The notes under the pieces are model-generated. The model did no database searches. It was not told where the DNA came from and saw only the letters and a program-made list of their open reading frames with translations. A stretch of 64,000 nt of DNA from Olivibacter sp. SDN3 (GTDB taxonomy: Bacteria > Bacteroidota > Bacteroidia > Sphingobacteriales > Sphingobacteriaceae), in NCBI RefSeq assembly GCF_014334135.1, contig NZ_CP060497.1, forward strand, positions 3,100,001-3,164,000. Direction: 5' to 3'. Position 1 is the stretch's first letter. Each line of letters opens with the position of its first letter. Positions 55,207-55,908 of the stretch are shown here, one piece after another. A program made the position numbers and the translations under genes.

Positions 55207-55359
55207 AGCGTAATTTTTTTCGGTAAGATAAGAATAATATGGAAGATAAATACAGGGTCAAAAGCTATCAGGGGCTTTTTAGATGTACATAAGCAAGCTT
55301 GTGGCGCGAGCGTTACATTTGTGTGGCGTATCTAAAAAGCTTAAAAATCCCTGGCTAAG

Positions 55360-55884
55360 CTAATTGGATTCGCGCTGAACCGAATTGAGATAGCGACAGA
55401 CCATATTTAATTGATGTTTTCCTTAATCAACTTAGAACGTAAACAAGTTAAATTGAAGCCCAATCAATTTAGGTTGAAGTTCATTCTTATTGGCATAGCC
55501 CTTAAGTCGGTTAACATGGGGTCAGATCTTATTGGAAATACCGTCATTTTAATTGACTTAGCCTTCAATCAAGTTAGTTTCAACCTCATCTTGATCAGTA
55601 TCACGATGAAACCAGTTAAGGCGATCTTAAACCCAATTAAAAAGGAGGCCAACTTAATTGACTTAGACCTCAACCCGGTTATACTGAAGTTCAACTTGAT
55701 CGGGTTAGACGCTATATTAATTAGTATAGCGTTGAAACTGGTTAAGGTGATCTTAAACCCGATTAAAAATAAGGTCAACTTAATTGACTTAGGATTGACT
55801 TTAATTAAGTTAGCGTCAAAGCAAATTAGCAATAAAACAATGCTGATCGGAAATATGTTGCTGCAAAATAAGCGAATTTTATAG
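55360..55884. repeat. Degenerate 21-bp tandem repeat array, about 25 units
   Basis: From 55360 the sequence can be cut into consecutive 21-bp units that share a common form: a pyrimidine, one or two purines at positions 3-4, then TTA or TTG/TCA/TCG at 5-7, T at position 11 and AA near positions 19-20. Clear units begin at 55549, 55654 and 55780 (TTAATTGACTTAG each), and 55612/55738 and 55633/55759 are close pairs 126 bp apart. The period keeps a frame open on each strand (plus 55411-55884), giving a heptad-like L-I-x-L peptide. I regard it as non-coding, but this is not proved. Confidence 0.8.
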
Positions 55885-55908
55885 TGCCCATATATGCCGT
55901 TTTATAAA

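What the first reader, a model, noticed from the sequence alone, without database searches (positions are those of the whole stretch)
55360..55884. Array of about 25 degenerate 21-bp repeats directly upstream of the valS promoter
The sequence divides into 21-bp units over about 525 bp with a shared pattern (R-T-T-A at positions 4-7, T at 11, AA near 19-20). Spacings between exact cores are 105 and 126 bp, both multiples of 21. Blocks of three units are duplicated (55612-55674 and 55738-55800). 21 bp is two helical turns, so the cores lie on one DNA face, as expected for a protein-binding or curved-DNA array. I know of no described repeat family with this form.
Basis: partly seen in the sequence, partly recalled or inferred. 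Interest (0 to 1): 0.75.

Follow-up and report, generated by a model that had tools for sequence, protein, structure and literature searches.

The report
Fixed-length 21-bp dyad-symmetric DNA arrays
In front of a tRNA-synthetase gene lies one of several roughly 530-bp noncoding stretches found in this bacterial genus, each made of about 25 mirror-symmetric 21-bp units that keep strict spacing and length while their letters change; no described repeat family fits, and they look like landing strips for an unknown DNA-binding protein.

Summary
Window 55352-55859 is about 24 units of exactly 21 bp, without an indel (lag-21 to lag-147 identity 0.39-0.51 against 0.27 in shuffles). It is not a one-off: the same genome holds three more arrays, and three of the four other sampled species of the genus hold ten. 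All 14 are 459-597 bp (mean 527, sd 36). Outside the genus the same model gave essentially ordinary 21-bp tandem repeats.

The unit, about WTTRNNNYAAAGYYRATTGRC, is dyad-symmetric in 13 of 14 arrays and is read largely as purine versus pyrimidine at fixed positions. Arrays persist at orthologous sites in two or three species although their sequence no longer aligns. One genome carries two end-to-end copies in unrelated flanks. At valS the array is absent from three sister species.

Tests do not support a protein, an RNA hairpin or curved DNA. I conclude it is a dsDNA site: phased symmetric operators on one helical face, probably filled cooperatively by an unknown dimeric protein. Binder and biological role are not identified. 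ParB is present in all five genomes and one species lacks detectable arrays, so this is not the genus's essential centromere.

The parts
55352..55859 (.). The array: 24.2 dyad-symmetric units of 21 bp (unit phase starts at 55369; consensus about WTTRNNNYAAAGYYRATTGRC), no indel
   Evidence: autocorrelation, cyclic profile HMM, dyad symmetry 0.84, 0 of 2000 column permutations reach it
55588..55666 (.). First copy of an internal higher-order duplication (spacing 126 bp = 6 units)
   Evidence: the repeat finder D1, 84% identity
55714..55792 (.). Second copy of the internal duplication
   Evidence: the repeat finder D1
55411..55884 (+). 157-codon open frame across the array; judged not to be a gene
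   Evidence: no family match; stops in this frame across the family match column composition; no codon-position signature
55866..55885 (+). valS leader sequence conserved in G001 and G002 (variant in G004), which have no array here; right-hand boundary of the array
   Evidence: upstream regions of valS in sister species

Best explanation
The array is a double-stranded DNA site: about 25 dyad-symmetric operators spaced exactly two helical turns apart, so that every dyad (one per 10.5 bp, two alternating kinds, TTTRNNNYAAA and GYYRRYYRRC) lies on the same face. The best reading is that an unidentified homodimeric DNA-binding protein fills it cooperatively, giving a straight nucleoprotein filament of about 50 helical turns that anchors, marks or organises the chromosome, as plasmid centromere arrays do on plasmids. 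Shown here: period, symmetry, purine/pyrimidine constraint, near absence of indels, near-constant length, and persistence at orthologous sites while the sequence turns over. Inferred: that a protein binds, that it is a dimer, that binding is cooperative, and the organising role.
For: Strict 21-bp register in 14 arrays at only 0.40-0.65 unit identity, length 527 +/- 36 bp. Dyad symmetry 0.73-0.88 in 13 of 14 arrays, at most 0.35% of column permutations as high; the model hits both strands at the same places. Dyad-related positions do not covary within a unit, as expected of independently read half-sites and not of stems. Position-specific purine/pyrimidine constraint: position 4 R in 299 of 308 units, position 8 Y in 302 of 308, positions 5-7 free. 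Orthologous arrays in three locus groups keep architecture while the sequence no longer aligns. Not curved.
Against: No binding protein found; neighbouring genes are diverse and share no regulator. One sampled species of the genus has no detectable array, and the valS array is missing in three sister species, so the function is dispensable or replaceable. ParB is present in all five genomes, so an essential segregation role is unlikely.
Confidence: 0.5

Rival explanations
1. A non-autonomous mobile or selfish element about 530 bp long: the whole array is copied to new intergenic sites by some recombinase or by gene conversion, and its symmetric units are recognition sites for that machinery.
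For: L076 and L116 of one genome align end to end, unit by unit, in unrelated flanks. Window-L071 and L069-L071 also align best end to end, though weakly. The valS site is empty in three sister species. Insertion contexts are diverse.
Against: No conserved ends, target duplications or associated recombinase seen. Arrays stay at orthologous sites over deep divergence with register intact, which decaying insertions would not do.
Confidence: 0.2
2. A structured noncoding RNA (or a pair of antisense RNAs) transcribed from the array; purine/pyrimidine conservation would reflect G-C, A-U and G-U pairing.
For: Both strands fold better than dinucleotide shuffles (z -4.65 and -3.50). Conservation at purine/pyrimidine level is what wobble pairing would allow.
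Against: Unit-order shuffles fold back about equally well, z -0.8 to 2.2; no covariation between dyad-related positions; no Rfam match; promoter-like sites at chance level; 21 bp has no rationale in A-form RNA.
Confidence: 0.1
3. An ordinary minisatellite: tandem duplication by slippage followed by neutral drift, no function.
For: Internal multi-unit duplications (lags 63, 84, 126). 21-bp tandem repeats are common in bacteria.
Against: Neutral arrays drift in copy number and lose register; these keep about 25 units and register at 40-65% unit identity, with dyad symmetry and position-specific constraint. Comparison 21-bp repeats are mostly shorter, more uniform and less symmetric, although the pattern that found them was itself palindromic.
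Confidence: 0.1
4. A protein-coding gene (157 residues here) made of hydrophobic heptads, degenerate or pseudogenised elsewhere.
For: Open frame of 157 codons here; L072, L074 and L116 have no stop in the same unit frame.
Against: Stops in this frame match the column composition (51 seen, 57 expected; mirror frame 29 and 37); most arrays have stops in it; L413 has no open frame above 35 aa at its centre; divergence of the G002 pair is equal at the three codon positions (0.61, 0.65, 0.60); the symmetry covers third positions too; no family match.
Confidence: 0.05

Closest known systems
Plasmid centromere arrays: sopC of F, parC of R1/pSK41, parS of pSM19035
   Same: Tandem arrays of short sites on DNA, with inverted repeats inside longer iterons (sopC) or tandem repeats bound by dimeric ribbon-helix-helix proteins (parC, parS); review PMC5016525. 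From memory, sopC is about 12 x 43 bp, similar in total length, and pSK41 parC has repeats of about two turns.
   Different: Chromosomal, three or four per genome, about 25 degenerate units, no adjacent par operon; ParB is encoded elsewhere; absent from one species of the genus.
Replication iterons of plasmids (from memory: 17-22 bp, direct repeats in phase with the helix)
   Same: Unit of about two helical turns, in phase on one face.
   Different: No adjacent rep gene; about 25 units instead of a few; unit is dyad-symmetric; several arrays on the chromosome.
REP/BIME palindromic repeats (GTAG/CGTC-tagged; PMC3733652, seen as abstract)
   Same: Short palindromes in intergenic DNA, sometimes clustered.
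   Different: REPs are 20-40 bp tagged hairpins with conserved sequence; here the sequence is degenerate, the register strict and array length near-constant.
TAACTGA heptamer repeats of Beggiatoaceae, Cyanobacteria and some Bacteroidetes
   Same: Intergenic arrays of short direct repeats, up to 43 copies (PMC4679880).
   Different: Exact 7-bp unit; here a degenerate 21-bp symmetric unit without 7-bp periodicity.

Membership tests
Bacterial centromere (par) array | Array of sites for a dimeric centromere-binding protein | tested here: inconclusive
   Dyad-symmetric units in register, but no binder known
Bacterial centromere (par) array | Adjacent par operon (motor plus binder) | tested here: not met
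   Nearest genes of the arrays carry no par functions; ParB_N protein of this genome lies at 459 kb
Bacterial centromere (par) array | Needed for segregation, present throughout the lineage | tested here: not met
   G003 has no detectable array; segregation itself not testable here
Replication iteron array | Adjacent replication initiator gene | tested here: not met
   Gene neighbourhoods
CRISPR array | Identical repeats separated by unrelated spacers | tested here: not met
   Continuous 21-bp units without spacers
REP/BIME | Conserved tagged hairpin of 20-40 bp | tested here: not met
   Unit identity 0.40-0.65 within arrays; dyad positions do not covary
Curved-DNA element | A/T steps phased at 10.5 bp, predicted curvature above periodic controls | tested here: not met
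   (wedge table recalled from memory)
Protein-coding repeat gene | Frame kept open beyond composition, codon-position signature | tested here: not met
Known structured RNA | Match to a described RNA family | tested here: not met
   No Rfam match up to E 1
Transposon/MITE | Inverted ends and target-site duplication | tested here: inconclusive
   Array copied end to end in G002 and empty site at valS, but no shared ends seen in the flanks; target duplications not systematically tested

The most novel reading that the evidence does not exclude
A new class of bacterial chromosomal site: a fixed-length (about 25 x 21 bp), nearly indel-free, dyad-symmetric nucleoprotein array whose architecture, not its sequence, is selected, so that, like eukaryotic satellite centromeres, it keeps its place and size while its DNA turns over by concerted evolution.
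Probability: 0.3. Interest if true: 0.87.

Novelty: new variant of a known kind. Interest (0 to 1): 0.7.

Why it matters
Most DNA sites in bacteria are recognised by conserved sequence. Here the conserved thing is geometry: two-turn spacing, mirror symmetry, purine/pyrimidine pattern and total length. If a protein reads this, it is a new way of assembling a nucleoprotein structure of defined size on a bacterial chromosome, and it offers a tractable model of satellite-like turnover at orthologous sites. If instead it is a mobile element, it would be an unusual one made of recognition sites only.

Tried and rejected
Rfam on 54-57 kb: no match. Pfam on the ORFs of both strands: nothing credible. 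Global fold-back and within-unit covariation: no support for RNA structure. Curvature: not above controls. Array-like hits in other Sphingobacteriaceae genera (L117, L118, L122, L124, L126) have the 21-bp period but no dyad symmetry (0.31-0.48, as in comparison repeats) and are set aside; L120 is degenerate and undecided. The IMG/VR hits inspected are mostly coding repeats, not this family. Canonical parS is nearly absent from this genome, but ParB is present, so the idea that the arrays replace ParABS was dropped. No paper on such repeats was found. The genus could not be named; Olivibacter is a guess from genome sizes only.

Full report
OBSERVATION. Window 55340-55900 has autocorrelation peaks at every multiple of 21 bp up to 147 (0.39-0.51 against 0.27 in dinucleotide shuffles, z 5.9-11.1), and no other place in the window has a comparable lag-21 value. 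TRF misses it because the units are too unlike. A cyclic 21-state profile HMM with allowed phase jumps sets the limits at 55352-55859: 508 bp, 24.2 units, no phase jump.

A FAMILY. Searching the genome with the translated array and then with sequence-only models of three and four units (models R1, R2) found three more arrays in this genome (4.906, 5.351 and 5.867 Mb), four in G004, three in G001 and three in G002, all of the same genus. G003, also of the genus, gave only matches of E 0.13 or worse. Background of 800 kb sampled from this genome scores at most 1.1 on the HMM, against 84-252 for the arrays. In 400 genomes drawn from the family, 400 from the order and 395 from the phylum (overlapping samples), hits outside the genus were few; those inspected that really have a 21-bp period lack the dyad symmetry wherever it could be measured. 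Those wide searches used strict filters and a genus-derived consensus, so arrays with another consensus could be missed.

ANATOMY. The 14 arrays are 459-597 bp long, mean 527, sd 36. Mean unit-to-unit identity within an array is only 0.40-0.65, yet phase shifts occur in only 2 of the first 12 arrays. The pooled unit is about WTTRNNNYAAAGYYRATTGRC. It has two dyads, on base pair 6 and between 16 and 17, i.e. one dyad every 10.5 bp: TTTRNNNYAAA and GYYRRYYRRC alternate. Per-array correlation with its own reverse complement is 0.73-0.88 in 13 arrays, reached by at most 0.35% of column permutations; L079 (0.45, p 0.16) has a phase shift, which blurs its profile. Constraint is position-specific and mostly purine/pyrimidine: position 4 is R in 299 of 308 counts and position 8 is Y in 302 of 308 (pseudocounts included), whereas positions 5-7 take nearly any base. 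This is not a general transition bias: in the two G002 paralogues constrained positions show 60 transitions to 26 transversions, free positions 34 to 33 (Fisher p 0.02).

EVOLUTION. Three locus groups are orthologous by flanking genes: L069/L075, L070/L078/L076 and L073/L079 (66-73% DNA identity of neighbours; 80% in the 120 bp directly beside L073). Within these groups the arrays themselves give no nucleotide alignment, but keep length, period and consensus. In contrast L076 and L116 of one genome align end to end, unit by unit, in unrelated surroundings (residual score 7.2). At valS, three sister species have the leader but no array. So arrays are copied or gained, lost, homogenised internally (63-, 84- and 126-bp higher-order repeats) and, once present, kept in register. 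That register is kept by selection is an inference from the near absence of indels at high divergence.

WHAT IT IS NOT. Coding: the stop-poor frame follows from the column composition (51 stops seen, 57 expected; mirror frame 29 against 37), most arrays have stops in it, L413 has no open frame over 35 aa at its centre, and divergence is not concentrated at third codon positions. RNA: the array folds better than dinucleotide shuffles on both strands, but that comes with the symmetric unit; unit-order shuffles fold back about equally well (11 of 12 arrays slightly positive, none beyond z 2.2) and dyad-related positions do not covary. Curved DNA: not above controls, and 10.5-bp A/T phasing is low (parameters recalled from memory). 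CRISPR, iteron, REP and plasmid par arrays each fail at least one tested defining feature.

MECHANISM. Dyads on one face of straight B-DNA at one-turn intervals, independent half-sites, shape-like (R/Y) recognition, strict register and near-fixed total length are what a cooperatively assembling dimeric protein would impose. The closest working analogues are plasmid centromere arrays (review PMC5016525). It is not filed as one: no par genes are adjacent, ParB is encoded elsewhere, and a sampled species of the genus shows no arrays. By GC skew the origin of this genome is near 1.4-1.5 Mb and the terminus near 4.4-4.7 Mb; all four arrays lie in the terminus half, which is suggestive only. The protein and the phenotype are unknown.

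NOVELTY. Paper searches found no description (open-access library only). I rate it a new variant of the known kind 'phased tandem protein-site array', with a real chance (0.3) that it is a class of its own.

Noticed in passing
window 55274-55284 and 55330-55340: Perfect 11-bp inverted repeat (GCTTTTTAGAT / ATCTAAAAAGC) with a 45-bp loop just left of the array, not seen in the G001 and G004 sites without the array.
   Followed up: no
L153:84-310, L179:2405-2620, L176:1850-2290, L144:7081-7350: Short degenerate noncoding-looking 21-bp arrays in Odoribacteraceae, Hymenobacter, Spirochaetes and Flavobacteriaceae with quite different unit sequences but high dyad symmetry (0.70-0.90); the architecture may be wider than this genus.
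   Followed up: partly
L126:7337-7777 (G350), L117:8861-9175 and L118:8729-9022 (G210): Near-perfect intergenic 21-bp tandem arrays in other Sphingobacteriaceae genera, without dyad symmetry.
   Followed up: partly
L415:6400-7000 (G612): Alternating 42-bp, transition-rich 21-bp array (ATCGTCCCAATGTCTAACGGA / GTTACCGCAATGTCTAAAGGG) in a distant member of the phylum, not symmetric.
   Followed up: no
L006:2043-2343 (G003): valS of G003 carries a coding insertion of 21-bp (7-residue) tandem repeats; unrelated to the arrays.
   Followed up: no
G000 whole genome: Only one weak parS-like palindrome (none within one mismatch of the stricter motif) although ParB is present; sister species have three to five weak or exact matches.
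   Followed up: partly
G000:C1 3.155, 4.906, 5.351 and 5.867 Mb: All four arrays of this genome lie in the terminus half by sampled GC skew (origin about 1.4-1.5 Mb, terminus about 4.4-4.7 Mb).
   Followed up: no
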